A DNA stretch of 29,321 nt from a virus. The notes beneath the pieces are model-generated. The model made no database searches. It saw only the letters and a program-made list of their open reading frames with translations, and was not told the origin of the DNA. Shown piece by piece: positions 3,566 through 24,545 of this stretch. The position numbers and the translations under genes were made by a program. Each line of letters begins with the position of its first letter. The stretch's first letter is position 1. The DNA lies in the IMG/VR virus record IMGVR_UViG_3300034105_001782, positions 1 to 29,321 of that record; one strand, 5' to 3'.

Positions 3566-4654
3566 ATGAGTGCATTATTAGAACGAATTAAAAAGAACAG
3601 TACGATTAAAGATTCTTCGATATTATCATCTTCAAAGTTCTTTACTAAGAAAGATATGGTAACAACTCCAATCCCTGCTCTTAATATTGCCCTATCAGGT
3701 AGAATTGACGGTGGATTAACTCCCGGTCTTACATTATTCTGTGGACCAAGCAAGCATTTCAAATCATTATTCTCTTTGATCCTTGCTAAGTCATATATGG
3801 ATAAGTATCCAGAATCTGTATTGATATTCTATGATTGTGAGTTTGGTACTCCAGAATCGTATTTTGATTCTCTGGGTATTGATAAAGAACGTGTAGTACA
3901 TACACCTATCATGAATATGGAAGAGTTCAAATTTGATATAATGCATCAGTTGCAAGAAATCAAACGGGGTGATAAGGTTATCTTTGTTATTGATTCTCTT
4001 GGTAATATGTCATCAAAGAAAGAAATGGAAGATGCTATTGAAGGTAAGTCAACTCAAGATATGACTCGTGCTCGCCAGATGAAGTCTATCTTTAGAATGA
4101 TTACTCCATATCTAGTTAAGTATGATATCCCTATGGTAGCAGTGAATCATATCTATATGACACAAGAGATGTTTAGTAAGCCAGTAGTATCAGGTGGATC
4201 AGGTATATACCTTTCGGCTGATAACATCTTTATACTTGGTCGTCAACAAGAAAAAGATGGAACTGAATTGGCAGGTTATAACTTCATTATTAATGTAGAG
4301 AAGTCTAGACATTCACGTGAAAAATCAAAGATACCTGTTACTGTTAAGTTTGAAGGTGGTATTAGCAAATGGTCAGGCTTATTAGAAATGGCTTTAGAAT
4401 CAGGTCATGTAATTAAACCAAGTAATGGTTGGTATTCAAAAGTTAACACTGAAACAGGCGAAGTAGAAGATAAAAAGTACAGAATAAAAGATACTGATAC
4501 TAAAGACTTTTGGTTACCTATTATATCAAGTACCAGTTTCCAAGAATGGATTAAAAAGAATTATCAAGTTTCAAATGGTGCTATTATATCAGATGAATCT
4601 ATTGAAGAAGAATTGGCATTAATTGAAGATGATTTAGGAGAAGATAGTGAGTGA
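3566..4654 (+). CDS. uvsX: UvsX, RecA-like recombinase
   Basis: A 362-residue RecA-fold ATPase that would form presynaptic filaments on single-stranded DNA and drive strand exchange for recombination-dependent replication. Walker A is GPSKHFKS (60-67), close to the T4 UvsX form, and Walker B is VIFVID (138-143). A YDCEFG segment (89-94) and a strongly acidic C-terminal tail (EEELALIEDDLGEDSE) also match UvsX. The start is set by GAGG eight bases upstream. It is followed with overlap by a gp40-like gene and then gp41, the same uvsX-40-41 order as T4, which independently supports all three calls. Confidence 0.95.
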   Translation: MSALLERIKKNSTIKDSSILSSSKFFTKKDMVTTPIPALNIALSGRIDGGLTPGLTLFCGPSKHFKSLFSLILAKSYMDKYPESVLIFYDCEFGTPESYFDSLGIDKERVVHTPIMNMEEFKFDIMHQLQEIKRGDKVIFVIDSLGNMSSKKEMEDAIEGKSTQDMTRARQMKSIFRMITPYLVKYDIPMVAVNHIYMTQEMFSKPVVSGGSGIYLSADNIFILGRQQEKDGTELAGYNFIINVEKSRHSREKSKIPVTVKFEGGISKWSGLLEMALESGHVIKPSNGWYSKVNTETGEVEDKKYRIKDTDTKDFWLPIISSTSFQEWIKKNYQVSNGAIISDESIEEELALIEDDLGEDSE

Positions 4655-4997
4655 TGATTTTAAGTTTTTAGTTGGACATAAAATAGTAGAAAACCATAGT
4701 GAAAAAGGTCTTTCTGCAATTAAGTTGACAGATGCTCCTTATGAAGGTATAATTTTTAGTTATGGTAAAGTTGAATTTCCTGAAGATGCTTTAGAAGGAG
4801 AAAATTGTCCAATAAAATTTGATTATGAGGTTTACAATAATGCTGGAATAGAATATAATGTAGATGAGTTCGAAAAATATATTGGAGATTTTCTTATAGA
4901 GTTAATCGTGTACCAATTATCTAAAAATGGCATTGTATATACAGGCGGAATTGATGACGATAACACAGACTATATTGAGCAACTTGATCCACAATGA
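4647..4997 (+). CDS. 40: gp40-like protein (head vertex assembly chaperone)
   Basis: A 116-residue protein starting at GTG with GGAG six bases upstream; the start overlaps the uvsX stop by 8 bases. It lies exactly between uvsX and gp41, where T4 carries gene 40, whose product helps head vertex (gp20 portal) assembly at the membrane. The size fits (T4 gp40 is about 114 residues), and the stretch GLSAIKLTDAPYEGIIFSYG looks like the conserved core. There is no signal peptide or membrane segment. Its 3' end overlaps the chosen start of the helicase gene by 44 bases. The assignment depends mainly on position and size, with moderate sequence resemblance from memory. Confidence 0.65.
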   Translation: MSDDFKFLVGHKIVENHSEKGLSAIKLTDAPYEGIIFSYGKVEFPEDALEGENCPIKFDYEVYNNAGIEYNVDEFEKYIGDFLIELIVYQLSKNGIVYTGGIDDDNTDYIEQLDPQ

Positions 4998-5583
4998 AAC
5001 ATACTCAAGGAAAGTAATTCCATTTATTAAACTTGAGTATTTTACTGATCATTATGAAAAAGTAATTTCACAAGAAATTATTAACTTTTTTGATCAATAT
5101 AATTCAACAATAACTCTTGATATATTAGCAATTCAGATCAGTAACAGGTCTGAATTGCGTGAAAACCAACTACAGGATATTGAAAAATATATCAATGAGT
5201 TAACTTTTAAAACTGATAATGAACAATGGCTTTATGATAATACTGAAAAATTCTGTAAGAATCGAGCAGTCATTAATGCAATCATTGATGCTTATGATAT
5301 TGTAGAAGGTAAAAATAAGGATAAAACTGAAGATGCTATACCAAGTCTTTTATCAGATGCTTTGGCAGTAAGTTTTGATTCTTCTGTAGGTCATGATTAT
5401 CTCGAAGATTATCAAGAACGATATGATTTCTATCATAGAGTAGAAGAAAAGATTCCATTTGATCTTGACATCTTCAATAAGATTACAAAGGGTGGATTAT
5501 CTAAAAAGACTTTGAATATATGCATGGCAGGATGTGTGCACCCTGAAACTTTAATCAGGGTGCGGTATAGGAAATTAGTCTAA
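4954..5583 (+). CDS. 41: gp41 replicative helicase, N-terminal part fused to a 16-residue N-intein
   Basis: A DnaB-family helicase N-terminal half: 193 extein residues followed by a tiny N-intein. The start at 4954 gives MTITQTILSNLIHNETYSRKV, which lines up with the T4 gp41 N-terminus; the upstream ATG at 4927 would add nine unrelated residues. Later segments (SFDSSVGHDYLEDY, IPFDLDIFNKITKGG, LNICMAG) match gp41 up to the middle of Walker A. There the frame changes character: Cys1 at 5533 begins CVHPETLIRVRYRKLV and stops. The rest of Walker A (TGVGKS) lies more than 1.1 kb downstream, behind a C-intein. The product is inactive as a helicase until trans-splicing joins it to the second half. 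The stop overlaps the convergent HNH gene by 9 bases. Confidence 0.92.
   Translation: MTITQTILSNLIHNETYSRKVIPFIKLEYFTDHYEKVISQEIINFFDQYNSTITLDILAIQISNRSELRENQLQDIEKYINELTFKTDNEQWLYDNTEKFCKNRAVINAIIDAYDIVEGKNKDKTEDAIPSLLSDALAVSFDSSVGHDYLEDYQERYDFYHRVEEKIPFDLDIFNKITKGGLSKKTLNICMAGCVHPETLIRVRYRKLV
5533..5580 (+). other. Atypical N-intein coding segment (16 residues)
   Basis: The codons after MAG read CVHPETLIRVRYRKLV then TAA. Cys1 with CxxPETLI is a standard intein block A. Nothing else of the N-terminal half of an intein is present, so the split falls right after block A, as in the atypically split VidaL and AceL-TerL inteins, not at the usual endonuclease position about 100 residues in. Confidence 0.88.
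5538..5563. repeat. 9-bp perfect inverted repeat inside the N-intein
   Basis: GCACCCTGA (5538-5546), an 8-base spacer, then TCAGGGTGC (5555-5563). It is GC-rich against the surrounding AT-rich DNA and sits just before two convergent overlapping stop codons. No T-run follows on either strand, so it is not a standard intrinsic terminator. It may protect an mRNA 3' end or be a protein-binding site. Confidence 0.7.
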
Positions 5584-6201
5584 GGTGAATCCTAATCTAT
5601 AACCTTTGGATAAGTATTCTTCTAGAAATTCAGGTTTTATTCTAGTTCTGTGTTTGCCATTGGTTATACATTTCATTCCTATTAAAGATTTGCCACCCAT
5701 AATAGCTCTTTCTATTTGTCCTTCTTTAGTTGCCCAATATGACCAAGGATTATTTGGAGATATTATAGAAGCTTTACCACCTAAACTAGCATGATATGAC
5801 AGAAGCTTTGGATCAAATATACCTACTTGATTTAGCATTTGAGTATGTATTCCTTTTAATCGCCATTCTTGTTTTTGATCTGGAGAAAATTTATCTGAAA
5901 AATACCCTATTTTATTTTCAAAACACCATTTACCCGTAATTTGACGTTGTTCTGAGGATAACTTAGCACCAAGCATATGCATAGATCTTAAATCATTAGG
6001 GTCTTTATTTATTTTCCAAAGTAGATAATGGGCAATAATATGTTCACGTACAGTAAAATATGTTAAATTAGATTCATCATCTGAACCACCTGAATGCACT
6101 GGTGTTATATGATGTCTATGTAAACCTGATTTAGGTTTATAGAATTCTTTATTAGATTTTCTAGATTCACACAGGTTGGTATATATGTTAATAAATAACA
6201 T
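5575..6201 (-). CDS. HNH homing endonuclease between the split-intein halves
   Basis: The only convincing minus-strand gene in the window: 208 residues, with AGGAG nine bases before the ATG (6211-6215 on the minus strand). The HNH core is HRHHITPVHSGG (28-39), N45, and REHIIAHYL (53-61). The C-terminal part (WATKEGQIERAIMGGK, ITNGKHRTRIKPEFL, YLSKGYRLGF) resembles the repeated DNA-binding modules of free-standing phage HNH enzymes. It would cut alleles lacking the insert and so spread the split-intein arrangement. The second HNH protein (12397) shares the same HNH layout, including REHYIAHWLL, so the two are distant relatives. The open frame is intact. The cleavage site is not known; the uninterrupted Walker A codons are the obvious candidate. 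Confidence 0.88.
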   Translation of the reverse strand: MLFINIYTNLCESRKSNKEFYKPKSGLHRHHITPVHSGGSDDESNLTYFTVREHIIAHYLLWKINKDPNDLRSMHMLGAKLSSEQRQITGKWCFENKIGYFSDKFSPDQKQEWRLKGIHTQMLNQVGIFDPKLLSYHASLGGKASIISPNNPWSYWATKEGQIERAIMGGKSLIGMKCITNGKHRTRIKPEFLEEYLSKGYRLGFTLD

Positions 6202-6229
6202 TGCTGATATCTCCTATTAAGATGTTAGA

Positions 6230-6266
6230 GCCAATGGATGTTTCAGCATCGCGATTGGCATTTTTT
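6230..6266 (+). terminator. Possible intrinsic terminator before the C-intein gene
   Basis: GCCAAT (6230-6235) pairs with ATTGGC (6254-6259); an inner GATG/CATC stem (6237-6240, 6247-6250) closes a 6-base loop; six T follow at 6261-6266. It faces rightward, so it would stop transcripts coming through the antisense of the HNH gene before the next promoter. The asymmetric internal loop weakens it. Confidence 0.45.
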
Positions 6267-6269
6267 ATG

Positions 6270-6298
6270 TTTACAATATACACTTTTTAGTGTATAAT
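6270..6298 (+). promoter_or_regulatory. Promoter with overlapping 8-bp palindrome, upstream of the second gp41 half
   Basis: TTTACA (6270-6275), 17 bases, TATAAT (6293-6298), 35 bases before the ATG. A perfect inverted repeat TATACACT-TTTT-AGTGTATA (6277-6296) covers the spacer and most of the -10, a good place for a repressor operator. It would give the second helicase fragment its own transcript. Confidence 0.6.
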
Positions 6299-6333
6299 CT
6301 ATTTATACAAAAATAACTTTCAGTAGGTGAAAA

Positions 6334-6705
6334 ATGTGGATAAATGATGAAATAAGTATAAAAAACATAGATAAACTTTTAAAAGAGGGTTATGAAATAG
6401 AAGTTGATTCTCCTGATGGTTATGTTCCAGTAAATTTTTATGTTGACAAAGGTATGTGGGAAGAATATGTTCTTCAATTAGATAATGGAACTATTGTTAG
6501 AATTAATGAAAATCATTTATTTGAAACTAGTTTTGGTTGGGAATATGCTAAAGATCTAGTACATATGTCTGAAGTACATTATTTAACTAATAATGGTTTT
6601 GTTAAAGGAAAAGTTCATAAAACTGGCCAAATAATCCCAATCGTTGATATTAATGTAGAACATGACAATCACCGGTACTATACCAATGGAGTATCGTCAC
6701 ATAAC
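6334..6705 (+). other. C-intein coding segment (124 residues)
   Basis: Block B-like DNGTIVRINENHLF lies around residues 50-63. Block F VDINVEHDNHRYYTNGV and block G SSHN follow, with penultimate His123 and terminal Asn124. The +1 extein residue is Thr (ACA, 6706-6708), an allowed nucleophile. There is no endonuclease domain. The 16 + 124 partition adds up to a mini-intein. Confidence 0.9.
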
Positions 6706-7506
6706 ACAGGTGTAGGCAAATCTATGTTCATGTGTCATGTTGCTGCTTCCAGTCTTCTACAAAATAAGAATGTTTTGTATATTACCATGGAAATGGCTGA
6801 AGAACGTATTGCAGAACGTATAGATGCTAATCTTCTTAATATGAATATGAATGAGATGGCTACAATAGATTTGCCTACATATAATAATCGTATTAATAAA
6901 TTGATTAAGAAGACTTCCGGTAAACTTATAGTTAAACAATATCCAACTTCAACTGCCCATTCAGGTCATTTTAAGGCTTTATTAGAAGAATTGAAGATCA
7001 AACGTAACTTCAAACCTGATATGATAATTATCGATTATTTAAATATCTGTTGCTCTTCACGTATTAAAAATGGTTCAGGTGTTAATTCATACACTTATGT
7101 TAAATCGATAGCTGAAGAACTTAGAGGTCTTGCAGTTGAATATGATGTACCATTATTAAGTGCAACCCAAACAACACGAGGTGGTTTTGGTAATACAGAC
7201 GTAGAATTAACCGATACTTCAGAATCTTTTGGTTTGCCTGCTACAGCAGATATGATGTTTGCTTTAATTGCTACAGAAGAACTTGAAAACTTAAACCAAA
7301 TCATGGTTAAGCAACTTAAGAATCGGTATGCAGATCCTGGTTATTATAAACGATTTGTTATAGGAGTTGATAGATCTAGAATGAAACTATATGATGTTGA
7401 AGAATCTGCTCAAAAGGATATTTCTGAGAGTGGCCAACCGGCAACTCAGTTCTTGACAGAGAGAAATAAAAAGTCACAAATTGAAACAAAAGGTTTTACT
7501 TTCTAG
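6334..7506 (+). CDS. 41: C-intein (124 residues) fused to the C-terminal part of gp41 helicase
   Basis: Residues 1-124 are a C-intein ending in SSHN; residues 125-390 are the RecA-like motor of gp41, beginning TGVGKS, which completes the Walker A begun in the gene ending at 5583. The motor has LYITMEMAEERIAERIDANLL, Walker B MIIIDYLNIC, the SATQTTRGGF motif, and a late LKNRYADPGYYKRF segment with the arginine region, all as in T4 gp41. Joined exteins give about 459 residues against 475 in T4. Splicing should ligate ...MAG to TGVGKS..., so ATP hydrolysis and DNA unwinding depend on it. The start has a weak GTAGGTG upstream and its own promoter. This is not a pseudogene: both halves are open, conserved and carry intein ends. 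Confidence 0.93.
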   Translation: MWINDEISIKNIDKLLKEGYEIEVDSPDGYVPVNFYVDKGMWEEYVLQLDNGTIVRINENHLFETSFGWEYAKDLVHMSEVHYLTNNGFVKGKVHKTGQIIPIVDINVEHDNHRYYTNGVSSHNTGVGKSMFMCHVAASSLLQNKNVLYITMEMAEERIAERIDANLLNMNMNEMATIDLPTYNNRINKLIKKTSGKLIVKQYPTSTAHSGHFKALLEELKIKRNFKPDMIIIDYLNICCSSRIKNGSGVNSYTYVKSIAEELRGLAVEYDVPLLSATQTTRGGFGNTDVELTDTSESFGLPATADMMFALIATEELENLNQIMVKQLKNRYADPGYYKRFVIGVDRSRMKLYDVEESAQKDISESGQPATQFLTERNKKSQIETKGFTF

Positions 7507-7522
7507 GAAAATGTGATATAAT
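7495..7522 (+). promoter_or_regulatory. Extended -10 promoter for the MazG-like gene
   Basis: TTTACT (7495-7500), 16 bases, then TGA-TATAAT (TATAAT at 7517-7522) followed by AGAT. The -35 lies in the last codons of the helicase gene. It shares spacing and the TATAATAGAT core with the boxes at 8917 and 10523. Confidence 0.65.
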
Positions 7523-7543
7523 AGATTTTTAATTGGAGATAAT

Positions 7544-7948
7544 ATGAGTATTAATTGGGTAAGTGATATTGCAATAATGCATCAAGGTTTTGGTGTAAAT
7601 GAAGTTGTTAAAACTTTTGATGATGACAAACTTAAGAAGTTTTTGGAATTCCGTATTGGTTGTTTACAAGAAGAATTGGATGAGTTAAAAGAAGCTAAAT
7701 CTGCCGATGATGCTGTAGATGCTTTAATAGATTTGGTTGTATTTGCTATTGGTACTTTGGATTCATATGAAGTAGATGCTTATACTGCTTGGAATAGAGT
7801 ATTGGATGCTAATTTAGGAAAACAAGTTGGTATTAAAGAAGGTCGACCTAATCCATGGGGATTACCAGACTTATTAAAACCAGAAGGTTGGACTGCCCCT
7901 ACCCATGTAGATAATGTTGGTTTATTTGCCCAGGTGTTTGATCAATAA
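7544..7948 (+). CDS. MazG-like nucleotide pyrophosphohydrolase
   Basis: A 134-residue all-alpha NTP-pyrophosphohydrolase-type protein. The metal-binding pattern is visible: EELDE (43-47) on one helix and DAVDALIDL (56-64) on the next, the EExxE...DxxxD arrangement of the MazG/HisE/dUTPase superfamily. It would hydrolyse a (d)NTP to the monophosphate and PPi. In T4 a related job (dCTP removal) is done by gp56, so a role in excluding a canonical dNTP from a modified genome is a reasonable inference, though general MazG house-cleaning is equally possible. GGAG seven bases upstream supports the start. Its stop shares one base with the next ATG. Confidence 0.75.
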   Translation: MSINWVSDIAIMHQGFGVNEVVKTFDDDKLKKFLEFRIGCLQEELDELKEAKSADDAVDALIDLVVFAIGTLDSYEVDAYTAWNRVLDANLGKQVGIKEGRPNPWGLPDLLKPEGWTAPTHVDNVGLFAQVFDQ

Positions 7949-12353: not shown

Positions 12354-12398
12354 GTCTTTGCACTTCTATAAATATATTTTTAAAAGGAGTGCAAAGAT
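12354..12398 (+). promoter_or_regulatory. Start-masking hairpin with a T4-type late promoter in its loop (I-TevI-like control)
   Basis: CTTTGCACT (12356-12364) is perfectly complementary to AGTGCAAAG (12388-12396). With flanking pairs the stem spans about 12354-12367 with 12385-12398 and buries both GGAG (12386-12389) and the first two bases of the ATG at 12397. TATAAATA, the T4 late promoter consensus, lies at 12367-12374. Read-through RNA would hide the start; a transcript beginning a few bases after the TATAAATA lacks the 5' arm and leaves it free. Confidence 0.8.
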
Positions 12399-13062
12399 GA
12401 ATTATTTAAAAATATATAACCAATTAATGCTTAACGCAAAAAATAGAGAAATAACTAATTATACTGAAAATCATCATATTATTCCTAAATGTATGGGCGG
12501 AAATAATGATATTAAAAATCTTATAAAATTAACTTTTAGAGAGCATTATATTGCCCATTGGTTATTAAGTAAAATGTATAAAAAAAATTTAAAAATATCT
12601 TATAAATTAGGATGCGCATTTTTATTAATGTCTAAATCAAATAATGGAAAAAGAATAACTAATTCAAAATTTTTTGATAGAGCTAGGACTCAATTTAAGA
12701 AATCACAAATTGAATTTTATAATTCAGATGAGGGGATAACTTATTTAAAAGAGAGAGGTAAAACTCGCAGTCAAAATAGAAAAAATTTATTTTCATATCA
12801 TTTTTATCATGAAACTTATGGCGATTTTTTATTACCTACTATAGATTTAGTTGAGTTATTTCCTGAACAAAAATTAAATTCATCAAATCTTGTAAAAGTT
12901 GGAAAAGAAGAAAGATCCTCAACTAAAGGATGGATATTATTTAAAAATAAAGATATTGGAGTTTCTGGATTTTTAAAAAAGAAAAAAGAAAAAATGAGTA
13001 ACTCTGCTAAAAATAGACAAAATGAAGTTTGGAATAAAGGTATTTCAACAAAAATTATATAA
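12397..13062 (+). CDS. Free-standing HNH homing endonuclease, late-expressed
   Basis: A 221-residue protein starting at 12397, directly behind AAAAGGAG; the upstream in-frame ATG at 12358 is part of the masking hairpin and is not used. The HNH core is ENHHIIPKCMGG (24-35), N41 and REHYIAHWLL (48-57). The rest is lysine/asparagine-rich, with a likely DNA-binding C-terminus (GVSGFLKKKKEKMSNSAKNR). Base use is much more AT-rich than in its neighbours, with long A/T runs, as expected for a mobile gene. It is inserted between the inositol-phosphate synthase and HAD genes, neither of which looks interrupted. The target is unknown. It is related in HNH layout to the minus-strand gene at 5575-6201, but the remainder is different. 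Confidence 0.87.
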   Translation: MNYLKIYNQLMLNAKNREITNYTENHHIIPKCMGGNNDIKNLIKLTFREHYIAHWLLSKMYKKNLKISYKLGCAFLLMSKSNNGKRITNSKFFDRARTQFKKSQIEFYNSDEGITYLKERGKTRSQNRKNLFSYHFYHETYGDFLLPTIDLVELFPEQKLNSSNLVKVGKEERSSTKGWILFKNKDIGVSGFLKKKKEKMSNSAKNRQNEVWNKGISTKII

Positions 13063-22325: not shown

Positions 22326-24545
22326 ATGAAACAGTATAGACAATTCCTAAAGGAAATGCCTTCCAAAACAATTGTATTTGCTTTTGGCAGATTTTCTCCT
22401 CCTACCACGGGTCATGGGCTACTTATTAAAGTAGTTAAAAAGTTTGCATCTAGTAATAAAGCAGATTATGTAATATATGCTTCTAGAACTCAAGATAAAA
22501 AGAAAAACCCATTATCGGTGGATAAAAAGATTCATTATTTGAATCTAATGTTTCCACACACCAATTTCAAACCTGCAACTGATACAGAGCGCACACCTAT
22601 AGAGGTTGCGAAAGCATTAAACTCTAAATATAAAAATCTTGTCATGATTGCAGGTTCTGATCGGGTTGGTGCTTTTGAAAAATTACTTAACCAATACAAT
22701 GGTATAGAATATAATTATGATTCTATTCAAGTAATTTCAGCCGGTGAAAGAGATCCAGATGCTGATGATGCTTCTGGTATGTCTGGTACTAAGATGAGAT
22801 CGGCAGCTTCTGAAGGTGATTACCAAATCTTTAAAAAGGGTTTACCCTCTACATTACGTGATATTGATGGTAAACTATTAATGAATGATGTTAGACAAGG
22901 AATGGGTCTTGATATCATTAAAGAACAATTTAAACTAAATGTTGATGAACTTAGAGAAAGATATTATAATAAAGAAATATTCAACATTGGTGATATTGTA
23001 GAATCAAATAACGAACCATTTGAGATATTAGACAGAGGTAGTAATTATCTTGTTGTTGTAAATTCAATTGGTGAAACTAGTAAAAAATGGATACAGGACG
23101 TAGTAATGTCAGAACAAACTTTATTTGAAGATATTCAACCTGGAGATGTACCTTCTGAAATTACATTCAAAGGTTATACAACTAAAAATCTTCATCATTC
23201 AGAAGATGCTATTAGAGCATTTGTACAAACTATAAAAATATCCGGTGATCACGATCCAATATCTGTTTTAAATGCATTGAAAGCAACAGATATCTACATG
23301 GGTATTAATGATAGGCATTTAGAACAAGGAAAAGTTCCGGATGAACAAGAATTGAATCAATGGGAAGATGCACATATAAAAGCAAAAATAGCTTTGGAAA
23401 GAAATGGAGATTTCCTACACCATTTAGATTATTGGCATATGCATGGAACTGAAATAGAACTTATGATAAATCAATTTAGAGCATCAACGGCAAATGGTAT
23501 GACTGAAGAATTAACAGACAAAACTCTTAAAACTAATGATAAACTTAAAGTTGCTAGAATGATTGCAACTATTTTAGGATTTGATGATGCTGAGAAATCA
23601 AGTAATGCTGAAACATTGGTAAATAATGCTTTACGTAAAACTAAAACTTTAAATAAAGATTCATTAAAAATTGTTTCCAAAATGTTAAAACTTGCAGATG
23701 AAGTTGGTATTAACTATGATAAGAAATCAATTAAAAATATCTCAAAAAGTAATTTAACTGAAGAACAATTTCAGTTAGCTACTGAAAGGGCAGAACGTTA
23801 TGGAAGACGCTTTCCAAACCCTATTGATAATTTTTGGATTAATGAAGTTAAAATTAATAAAACAATTAAATCTTTACCAAAGGATGATGCTGAAAAGATT
23901 GAAAATCTTGCAGCAACTGGACATGCAACTTTAAGTACTAAACGGCATGGAGTTGATCAATCTGAACTTACACATGTAGGAGCAAATTTAACTCCTGGTC
24001 CTAGAGGTACAGATACTATTGATAGAATGAAAGTCAGGTATATGAAGGAAGAAGAATTAGAATTAGATGAAGATTTTGATCTCACTGAAGAAGAAATTGA
24101 TGAAATAATAGATTCGCTTTCAGAAGAAGATATATTTGAGGCATATGATGATGATGAATTTATTATTATTGATGAAGAAGGCAATGAAGTAGAAATTCAA
24201 GTTCCTGTAAGTGAAGAAGCTCTTATGGAAGTTCTTTCTAAAATGGAAAGAATGAAAGCAAGACTTAGAATGGCAAAATATACACCTAAGTTAACTGCAA
24301 AACGTAAAATTGCTATGCGGACTCATTCAGATTCTAAAAAAATAAATAAAAGAGCTAGAAAATTAGCTGTTGGTCTTATCAAGAAAAAGTTGTTAAAAGG
24401 TAGAGATCCAGCTTCATTATCTACATCTGAAAGAGAAAGAATTGAACGTGTAATTGAGAAAAGAAAACCAATTATAAATCGTTTAGCTATGAAACTTACT
24501 TCAAAAGTTCGTAAAACAGAAAAAGATAGATTATCACATCACTAG
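22326..24545 (+). CDS. Cytidylyltransferase-like domain fused to a packaged-protein-type basic tail
   Basis: A 739-residue fusion. Residues 1-10, MKQYRQFLKE, are capsid-targeting-like. Residues 14-190 form a nucleotidyltransferase of the cytidylyl/NMN-adenylyl class: FGRFSPPTTGHGLL (20-33) carries the T/HxGH motif, and GMSGTKMRS (151-159) replaces the ISSTxxR loop. A beta domain follows (about 215-265), then helical modules. A very acidic tract (about 575-630, EEELELDEDFDLTEEEIDEI) is followed by a strongly basic C-terminus (from about 640, with RKLAVGLIKKKLLKGRD), resembling DNA-binding tails of other phage head proteins. The acidic ELxxDE sites could be cut by the prohead protease, releasing pieces. 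If NAD-related, it would pair with the ADP-ribosyltransferase, but its substrate is unknown. A TATAAATA late promoter lies upstream. Confidence 0.78.
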   Translation: MKQYRQFLKEMPSKTIVFAFGRFSPPTTGHGLLIKVVKKFASSNKADYVIYASRTQDKKKNPLSVDKKIHYLNLMFPHTNFKPATDTERTPIEVAKALNSKYKNLVMIAGSDRVGAFEKLLNQYNGIEYNYDSIQVISAGERDPDADDASGMSGTKMRSAASEGDYQIFKKGLPSTLRDIDGKLLMNDVRQGMGLDIIKEQFKLNVDELRERYYNKEIFNIGDIVESNNEPFEILDRGSNYLVVVNSIGETSKKWIQDVVMSEQTLFEDIQPGDVPSEITFKGYTTKNLHHSEDAIRAFVQTIKISGDHDPISVLNALKATDIYMGINDRHLEQGKVPDEQELNQWEDAHIKAKIALERNGDFLHHLDYWHMHGTEIELMINQFRASTANGMTEELTDKTLKTNDKLKVARMIATILGFDDAEKSSNAETLVNNALRKTKTLNKDSLKIVSKMLKLADEVGINYDKKSIKNISKSNLTEEQFQLATERAERYGRRFPNPIDNFWINEVKINKTIKSLPKDDAEKIENLAATGHATLSTKRHGVDQSELTHVGANLTPGPRGTDTIDRMKVRYMKEEELELDEDFDLTEEEIDEIIDSLSEEDIFEAYDDDEFIIIDEEGNEVEIQVPVSEEALMEVLSKMERMKARLRMAKYTPKLTAKRKIAMRTHSDSKKINKRARKLAVGLIKKKLLKGRDPASLSTSERERIERVIEKRKPIINRLAMKLTSKVRKTEKDRLSHH

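What the first reader, a model, noticed from the sequence alone, without database searches (positions are those of the whole stretch)
4954..7506. gp41 helicase broken in the Walker A loop by an atypical split intein (16 + 124 residues)
The sequence shows ...MAG followed by CVHPETLIRVRYRKLV-stop, and 750 bases later a protein with block B, F and G motifs ending SSHN followed by TGVGKS. The split lies just after block A. Classical split inteins (including the gp41-1 and gp41-8 types in fractured phage genes) split about 100 residues in; only a few inteins (VidaL from a T4-like helicase, AceL-TerL) have this tiny N-part. A new member with 16 residues is of value for splicing mechanism, and it makes the phage's only visible replicative helicase depend on trans-splicing.
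Basis: partly seen in the sequence, partly recalled or inferred. Interest (0 to 1): 0.82.

Follow-up and report, generated by a model that had tools for sequence, protein, structure and literature searches.

The report
Two-part self-splicing phage DNA helicase
This phage's DNA-unwinding enzyme is encoded as two separate genes whose products probably stitch themselves together through a self-cutting protein tag of unusual shape, with a selfish DNA-cutting gene lying backwards between them; the arrangement recurs in many uncultured phages.

Summary
gp41 is broken in its Walker A loop: N-half ...ICMAG|CVHPETLIRVRYRKLV-stop (5533-5580), C-half of 124 intein residues (6334-6705) ending SSHN|TGVGKS. 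This is a VidaL-like, atypically split class 1 intein; a contiguous relative models on the VidaL crystal structure (1.4 A over 136 residues). It is not unique: of 87 IMG/VR loci parsed, 75 are split (IntN 14-21 residues), 6 contiguous, 6 without an N-part found. Most gaps hold an antisense HNH gene, with a T4-late-promoter motif on its strand in 42 of 45 distinct loci. A phage about 92% identical in flanking DNA has an intact, empty gp41, and the cassette is often more alike between phages than its exteins, so it probably homes. Eleven of 75 split loci have no endonuclease gene yet stay split. One contiguous copy is nearly isogenic with a split one. Seven contigs carry gp41 in three pieces with two split inteins. 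VidaL itself sits in a RecA-like gene here, not a helicase. Splicing, cleavage and late expression are inferred, not shown. Whether this gp41 site is already published could not be fully checked.

The parts
4954..5532 (+). gp41 N-extein (helicase N-terminal part up to ..ICMAG); the longest ORF begins at 4927
   Evidence: phrog_19 positions 161-361, E 4e-39
5533..5580 (+). IntN, 16 residues CVHPETLIRVRYRKLV, followed by stop TAA 5581-5583
   Evidence: homologous 14-21 residue IntN in the 75 split loci, 40 distinct sequences
5575..6201 (-). HNH homing endonuclease gene, 208 aa, antisense, overlapping the IntN stop by 9 nt; C-terminal NGKHRTRIKPEFLEEYLSKGY region
   Evidence: phrog_655 homing endonuclease E 1e-19; Pfam HNH E 5e-4, 20.5 bits, below its 21.4-bit cut-off; 65% identical copy on the contig of L002
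6270..6298 (+). sigma70-like promoter TTTACA-17-TATAAT upstream of the IntC gene (inferred from consensus only)
   Evidence: 24 sites in 3 kb against 20.3 in shuffles, so weak alone; TATAAT upstream of IntC in 23 of 45 distinct loci, expected 10.9
6300..6307 (-). T4-type late promoter motif TATAAATA on the strand of the HNH gene (inferred)
   Evidence: same motif and orientation in 42 of 45 distinct loci, expected 2.2, and 14 of 16 clusters
6334..6705 (+). IntC, 124 residues: block B NENH, block F PIVDINVEHDNHRYY, block G VSSHN (block names recalled)
   Evidence: AlphaFold model pLDDT 83.9, best PDB match VidaL
6706..7503 (+). gp41 C-extein, starts TGVGKS (+1 Thr), DnaB_C domain; stop 7504-7506
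   Evidence: Pfam DnaB_C E 3e-16; phrog_19 positions 362-601

Best explanation
A naturally split class 1 intein of the VidaL (S1) type interrupts the Walker A loop of the phage replicative helicase gp41, and an antisense HNH homing endonuclease gene lies between its two coding parts. The N-half (gp41-N + 16-residue IntN) is probably made with the replication genes around it. The C-half (124-residue IntC + gp41-C) starts at its own ATG and ribosome site, probably from its own promoter. The two bind; the IntN strand completes the intein fold. Cys1, Asn124 and Thr+1 then excise the intein and join MAG to TGVGKS, restoring the ATP-binding loop. The HNH gene is probably made late, from a TATAAATA promoter on its own strand. 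It probably cuts intein-free gp41 alleles near the P-loop so that repair copies the whole cassette of about 1.17 kb (IntN, HNH, IntC) as one mobile unit. Shown: anatomy, homology, conserved residues, purifying selection, an empty allele, cassette-versus-extein incongruence, motif enrichment. Inferred: trans-splicing, endonuclease target, promoter use.
For: Anatomy. Both halves fit one helicase profile end to end. Joined IntN+IntC matches VidaL (6vgv) E 1e-8. Contiguous relative L178 models at pLDDT 96.4 and aligns to 6vgv at rmsd 1.4 A over 136 residues, Z 21.6. In 81 complete inteins the last residue is N, the one before H, and +1 T in 81 of 81; the search pattern allowed N/Q/A/S, H/Q and T/S/C. 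Contiguous inteins at the same site in L003, L123, L125, L178, L179, L181. pN/pS window-L002: IntN 0.15, IntC 0.17. Empty allele L006: exteins 94.5% and 98.5% identical to the window's with no intein, whereas L002 has an 80.7% identical intein but exteins of 54% and 70.7%. In 6 of 9 usable pairs IntN, gap and IntC are each more alike than both flanks, e.g. L106-L169 100/84/85% against 77/59%, L153-L167 96/88/89% against 68/71% (pairs chosen by me). pS of IntC is below that of the C-extein in 9 of 12 chosen pairs. Late motif on the HNH strand in 42 of 45 distinct loci, expected 2.2, 14 of 16 clusters against 2.6% of random windows. No second gp41: one match in the own record; in 12 carriers' contigs of 33-107 kb, 10 have one match and 2 show one gene in two pieces. 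No Rfam intron in the gap.
Against: No splicing, cleavage or transcription was measured. Curated intein models do not reach their cut-offs: no intein family on the window halves; on L178 TIGR01445 E 0.014 and TIGR01443 E 0.084, on L003 TIGR01445 E 0.011, all below cut-off. Block B has N..H where most inteins have T..H (recalled), so activity is not assured. The record is a 29 kb fragment, so an intact second gp41 elsewhere is not excluded. In the window alone TATAAATA is no commoner than chance (6 found, 7.7 expected). IntN has only 11 synonymous sites and dS is near saturation. pS of IntC is not lower than that of the C-extein in 3 of 12 pairs, window-L002 among them (0.687 against 0.634). 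In 3 of 9 usable pairs (L106-L110, L140-L173, L122-L144) the cassette is not clearly more alike than its flanks.
Confidence: 0.83

Rival explanations
1. The two halves work as a two-subunit helicase without splicing, the intein parts being inert tails. A nuclease-split ribonucleotide reductase that works as two peptides is a precedent.
For: [quoted passage not shown]
Against: The break lies inside the ATP-binding loop. Terminal His-Asn and +1 Thr are kept in 81 of 81 inteins, IntN and IntC are under purifying selection, and contiguous inteins occupy the same site: hard to explain if the tails were inert.
Confidence: 0.06
2. Splicing at the RNA level, or ribosome bypassing, joins the halves across the gap; the intein resemblance is secondary.
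For: T4-like phages do carry group I introns and one long bypass (recalled).
Against: No Rfam family in 4600-7600 at E up to 1. The gap holds an antisense gene and ends in its own ATG with AGGTG upstream. Removing only the gap would still leave an intein of 140 residues. Gap length varies from 34 to 1575 nt among 75 split loci.
Confidence: 0.03
3. gp41 is broken and decaying in this phage; the helicase function is supplied elsewhere.
For: The record is incomplete (29 kb).
Against: The same split arrangement in 75 of 87 parsed loci, both exteins under purifying selection, and no second gp41 in 12 contigs of 33-107 kb carrying the intein (11 of them split, L148 among these, and L125 contiguous).
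Confidence: 0.04
4. The intein is functional but the HNH gene between the halves is a passenger that does not mobilise it; inteins spread by general recombination between related phages.
For: 11 of 75 split loci have no endonuclease gene and still persist. Different C-terminal HNH types occupy the same gap. Cleavage was not tested.
Against: 59 of 75 split loci keep a full antisense HNH gene in the same place, with a conserved late motif. In 6 of 9 usable pairs the cassette parts resemble each other more than their flanks do.
Confidence: 0.2

Closest known systems
VidaL intein (PDB 6vgv; 16-residue IntN; described in PMC13014065, passages read)
   Same: Class 1 fold (model of L178 at 1.4 A over 136 residues), S1 split after the second strand, 16-residue IntN, P-loop host ATPase, endonuclease-size ORF between the halves in L095.
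   Different: 28% identical IntC in alignment A1. In contigs with 98-99% identical IntC the host is a RecA-like protein (GESG|SGKS), +1 Ser; in L095 the ORF between is sense, 373 aa from its ATG, with no Pfam match and an unknown-function PHROG. Here the host is gp41 (AG|TGVGKS), +1 Thr, HNH gene antisense.
Fractured genes with split inteins and a homing endonuclease gene between (Dassa et al. 2009, seen only as a citation)
   Same: By its title, split inteins together with homing endonucleases in broken genes.
   Different: Paper not held, so its gp41 sites, orientation and nuclease family could not be compared. By recall its inteins split about 100 residues in and its nuclease family is Vsr-like.
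gp41-1 split intein (PDB 6qaz)
   Same: Same host helicase (by name) and intein fold (Z 18.5-19.0 to the L178 model).
   Different: Canonical split near residue 88 (recalled); different site: its native junction residues are SSS (PMC7090010, passage read), not TGVGKS.
AceL TerL, GOS TerL and PolB16 OarG inteins (PMC13014065, passages read)
   Same: Naturally split with short IntN of about 15-37 residues.
   Different: TerL types split after the first helix (S2); PolB16 is cysteine-less; by their names the hosts are a terminase and a polymerase.

Membership tests
Class 1 intein | Nucleophile at position 1 (Cys/Ser) | tested here: met
   Cys1. It is Cys in 81 of 81 relatives, but the search pattern required it.
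Class 1 intein | C-terminal His-Asn and Cys/Ser/Thr at +1 | tested here: met
   H123 N124 | T+1; 81 of 81 complete inteins H, N, T.
Class 1 intein | Block B histidine | tested here: met
   H61 invariant in the alignment of 32 IntC; the T of T..H is N here.
Class 1 intein | Hedgehog/intein (HINT) fold | tested here: met
   Contiguous relative L178 pLDDT 96.4, best match VidaL Z 21.6; window IntC alone TMq 0.70 to 6vgv. The joined 16+124 was not modelled.
Class 1 intein | Match above cut-off to a curated intein model | tested here: not met
   No intein model on the window halves; L178 and L003 below cut-off.
Atypically split (S1) intein | IntN of about 15 residues ending after the second strand, IntC carrying the rest | tested here: met
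   16 + 124; strand 7-13 of the L178 model falls within the IntN part.
Atypically split (S1) intein | Trans-splicing activity | not testable with these tools
   Needs expression of both halves.
Fractured gene with homing endonuclease | Endonuclease gene between the split halves | tested here: met
   HNH gene 5575-6201(-), phrog_655 E 1e-19.
Fractured gene with homing endonuclease | Same nuclease family as the published fractured genes | not tested
   Paper not held.
Homing element | Empty allele in a close relative and cassette-extein incongruence | tested here: met
   L006 empty at 91-93% flank DNA identity; L002 with similar intein in dissimilar exteins.
Homing element | Endonuclease cuts the empty site | not testable with these tools
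   Needs purified HNH protein and an intein-free gp41 fragment.
T4 gp41 / DnaB-like helicase | Both halves on one helicase profile, contiguous | tested here: met
   phrog_19 161-361 and 362-601; DnaB_C.
Canonical split intein (gp41-1 type) | Split about 90-120 residues in | tested here: not met
   IntN is 16 residues.

The most novel reading that the evidence does not exclude
Split inteins in phage gp41 go through a visible life cycle. A late-expressed antisense endonuclease spreads and holds the gene split; the endonuclease decays and is deleted while the gene stays split (L122 full, L115 truncated, L107 and L108 gone, inteins nearly identical). Some copies fuse back into a contiguous intein (L123 beside L106, where 827 bp are replaced by 13 bp between phages 93% identical downstream). 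In other lineages a second split intein has been added, so that the replicative helicase is assembled from three polypeptides by two trans-splicing reactions (L184, L186, L187, L188, L225, L226, L231).
Probability: 0.45. Interest if true: 0.78.

Novelty: new variant of a known kind. Interest (0 to 1): 0.62.

Why it matters
The family gives 40 distinct natural IntN of 14-21 residues, the size wanted for protein semisynthesis, in a cysteine-dependent type; among the fast split inteins listed in PMC13014065 (passages read) only VidaL has a natural short IntN. It also gives near-isogenic split and contiguous copies (L106/L123), which make a standing question directly testable: PMC12707363 (passage read) says that split inteins are believed to come from contiguous ones and then adapt. 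The antisense, late-motif endonuclease suggests how a selfish gene can break an essential helicase without disturbing early replication. Three-piece helicases would be natural double trans-splicing systems.

Tried and rejected
RNA intron in the gap: no Rfam hit at E up to 1 in 4600-7600, none at gathering score in the whole window. Hairpin in the IntN codons (seen by eye): not pursued. Hits of cyanophages to query residues from 50 on: S-ShM2 gp41 is annotated as one CDS of 1380 bases, so I took these as over-extended alignments; not examined further. Cultured hosts: 298 of 50,697 phage records match the IntC at E up to 1, all under 60% identity; the 20 rows listed are at most 33.6%, 13 of them named UvsX/RecA-like or terminase. 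Bacterial and archaeal genomes: 14 stretches matched a pattern, none a relative. Direction of split-contiguous change: the tree nests L123 in a clade of split copies (its fork 98/97, the clade 100/99) and needs 4 changes with the outgroup, 3 without. One clade of L123+L178+L181 is only weakly rejected (AU p 0.034; with L003 0.029), while L123+L003 (0.60) and L178+L181+L003 (0.41) are not, so direction is open. Invalid results: the window-L006 dN/dS rows come from a frame error and are not used; the L089-L090 row failed to align past the gap and is not used. Is this gp41 site already published? I recall the name VidaL_T4Lh-1, which may be a helicase intein of this family. T4Lh found 10 papers, none about inteins by title and start of abstract; VidaL with UvsX and intein found 0; Neugebauer 2017, Burton 2020, Bachmann 2015 and Dassa 2009 are not held. 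Of the rows listed by searches on split intein with fractured genes, gp41, metagenome, P-loop and three-fragment terms (20 of 28, 25 of 31, 15 of 36, 15 of 40, 10 of 12 shown) none describes it by title and start of abstract. Rows dropped: L102 repeats L002, L054 repeats L163, L092 has the same intein as L091. L148 and L180 carry the intein but escaped the pattern, so 87 of 89 were parsed; read later, L148 is split with a 17-residue IntN and L180 has one open frame from IntN onward; neither is in the counts.
Full report
What is there. The window is the whole of one IMG/VR virus record of 29,321 bases. On its + strand stand an 834-aa ORF that I read as DNA polymerase (not searched), a 189-aa ORF, UvsX (Pfam T4_UVSX_C), a small ORF and gp41. 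gp41 stops early...LSKKTLNICMAG runs into CVHPETLIRVRYRKLV and TAA at 5581-5583. A second ORF begins at 6334 with ATG after AGGTG, runs through 124 residues to ...NHRYYTNGVSSHN at 6705, and continues TGVGKSMFMC..., the rest of gp41, to 7503. The two parts fall on adjoining positions of one helicase profile, phrog_19 161-361 and 362-601. In the 750 bases between them, on the other strand, lies an HNH homing endonuclease gene of 208 codons (5575-6201; phrog_655 E 1e-19; Pfam HNH just below its cut-off), which overlaps the N-half stop by 9 nt.

It is an intein. The IntC alone finds the VidaL intein in the PDB (6vgv, E 4e-7), and the joined 16+124 does so at E 1e-8. A contiguous relative at the same site of another phage's gp41 (L178) models with pLDDT 96.4 and lies on VidaL with rmsd 1.4 A over 136 residues, Z 21.6, above gp41-1 at 19.0. 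The window's IntC alone models at pLDDT 83.9 and also finds VidaL first. In 81 complete inteins of the family the last two residues are His-Asn and the +1 residue is Thr in every case, though the search pattern allowed others. Curated intein profiles miss it or stay below cut-off, and block B reads N..H rather than T..H.

It is a large family. A scan of IMG/VR with the IntC alignment gave 312 relatives among 366 matched stretches, of which the best 80 were kept. With earlier loci and the window added, 89 were examined and 87 parsed: 75 split, 6 contiguous, 6 with no N-part found (for 5 of the 6 under 700 bases lie upstream). IntN lengths among the 75 are 16 in 25, 18 in 25, 17 in 16, 19 in 4, 14 in 3, 15 in 1 and 21 in 1; 40 sequences are distinct. 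All 87 sit before the gp41 P-loop, which the pattern required, where it did not, 78 of 78 copies found do so as well. The scan of 84,980 bacterial and archaeal genomes found none, and in 50,697 phage records only more distant inteins were listed, the 20 rows seen being at most 33.6% identical.

The gap. Of 75 split loci, 45 have a full antisense HNH gene, 14 that and a further sense ORF, 2 a truncated antisense HNH, 3 a sense ORF only (phrog_655 in the two tested), and 11 no endonuclease gene; by distinct intein sequence 33, 12, 1, 2 and 5 of 53. The HNH genes end in several different C-terminal modules, so the gap seems to have been reoccupied or reshuffled. In 42 of 45 distinct loci with a full HNH the motif TATAAATA stands on its strand within 140 bases upstream of IntC, against 2.2 expected. 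After clustering at 80% intein identity it is 14 of 16, against 2.6% of random windows of the same loci (binomial 8e-21 if clusters are independent). TATAAATA is the T4 late-promoter consensus (recalled). In the window alone it is no commoner than chance (6 against 7.7), but two of its copies stand about 30 bases before the ORFs at 22326 and 26592. On the sense strand TATAAT occurs upstream of IntC in 23 of 45, against 10.9 expected. My reading is that the endonuclease is a late gene, insulated from the early helicase transcript by lying backwards, while the C-half has its own early promoter. This is inferred from motifs.

It moves. L006 is a phage whose flanking DNA is 92.9% (left) and 91.1% (right) identical to the window's across the site, with an uninterrupted gp41; its exteins are 94.5% and 98.5% identical at protein level. 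L002 has the same cassette at 80.7% intein identity in exteins of only 54% and 70.7%. In 6 of 9 usable pairs IntN, gap and IntC are each more alike than the DNA on either side; L106-L110, L140-L173 and L122-L144 are mixed. pS of IntC is below that of the C-extein in 9 of 12 pairs. I chose these pairs. L108 and L122 share an almost identical intein and a similar N-extein (pS 0.07) but have different C-exteins (pS 0.64), so recombination has broken there.

Decay and fusion. With one and the same IntN (CVHPETRVRIRFRKKQ) there are loci with a full HNH (L122, gap 704), a truncated one (L115, gap 375) and almost nothing (L107, 157; L108, 34). L108 looks like a deletion between short CTTT repeats. 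The split gene therefore can persist without its endonuclease. Contiguous copies also exist. L123 is identical to L106 for the first 32 bases of the intein and 92.6% identical downstream, with 13 bases where L106 has 827. The tree nests L123 among split copies, and one clade of L123 with L178 and L181 is weakly rejected (p 0.034), so split and contiguous forms have probably interchanged at least twice. The direction is not settled, because homing could also have turned a contiguous allele into a split one.

What it resembles. It works like VidaL, splits where VidaL splits, and shares its fold. But the VidaL IntC, at 98-99% identity, is found in IMG/VR in a RecA-family gene (GESG|SGKSY), in L095 with IntN CLPKEAVVQIRLTKKG and a 373-aa ORF between in the sense direction. 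I recall a name VidaL_T4Lh-1 that may stand for a different, helicase-borne intein; the papers are not held, so the gp41 site may already have one published member. That is the main reason for calling the element a new variant, not a new kind.

Three pieces. In long contigs no second gp41 was found: 10 of 12 carriers gave one match, and two gave one gene in two further pieces. Those two, and others found with their third piece, carry a second split intein in gp41 at TSE|SFGLPATAD. Its IntN is 88-96 residues, related to gp41-1 (E 1.4e-6 for that of L169), and its IntC about 90 residues ending TKN. Of 59 loci with the second IntC, 8 also carry the P-loop intein: 7 split there (L184, L186, L187, L188, L225, L226, L231; three lineages by sequence) and 1 contiguous (L239); 18 have an uninterrupted P-loop, and 33 could not be read at the P-loop. 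The pieces were read out in L187, L225, L226, L231, L239 and L177; L184, L186 and L188 are the contigs of L169, L174 and L177. In those seven the helicase should need two trans-splicing reactions.

What is shown and what is not. Shown by sequence: the split, the homology and fold, the conserved catalytic ends, selection, the empty allele, the shared cassette, the motif enrichment. Not shown: splicing, endonuclease cleavage, promoter use, absence of a second gp41 in this phage (the record is a fragment), and the direction of split-contiguous change.

Noticed in passing
L187 888-4546 (also L184, L186, L188, L225, L226, L231): gp41 in three pieces with two split inteins: the P-loop one (IntN 15-18) and a canonical one at TSE|SFGLPATAD.
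   Followed up: partly
L182 760-3766 (Pseudomonas phage PA5oct, NC_071039): UvsX of a cultured phage is split VidaL-fashion: gp276 ends FAGESG|CLPETAKVKIRLSKKQS-stop, gp275 ORF between, gp274 starts MEYIEKEV and reaches SSHN|SGKSY; gp274 is annotated as seen by mass spectrometry. A tractable test system.
   Followed up: partly
L106, L110, L129, L149, L169 and kin: The antisense HNH reading frame runs about 70 nt past the IntN stop, through the whole IntN and into the N-extein codons (18 loci), so the IntN DNA may be coded on both strands.
   Followed up: no
window 12358-13062 (+): A second, free-standing HNH homing endonuclease of the same family (phrog_655 E 2e-39) with TATAAATA at 12367-12374 near its start.
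   Followed up: no
L090 4574-5143 (-): Beside the split gp41, a neighbouring ORF has an intein-C-like end near its start (..VEDAHHYIFSDGTLSHN|S), so a second gene there may also be split.
   Followed up: no
L134, L140, L145 and others, between IntN stop and the antisense HNH: An additional sense ORF of about 100-260 residues in gaps over 1 kb; of the two tested, L140's matches no family and L134's phrog_3708 of unknown function.
   Followed up: partly
L150, L155, L159: Gap ORF in the sense direction; in L150 and L155 it is of the same homing-endonuclease family (phrog_655), so the nuclease occurs in both orientations.
   Followed up: no
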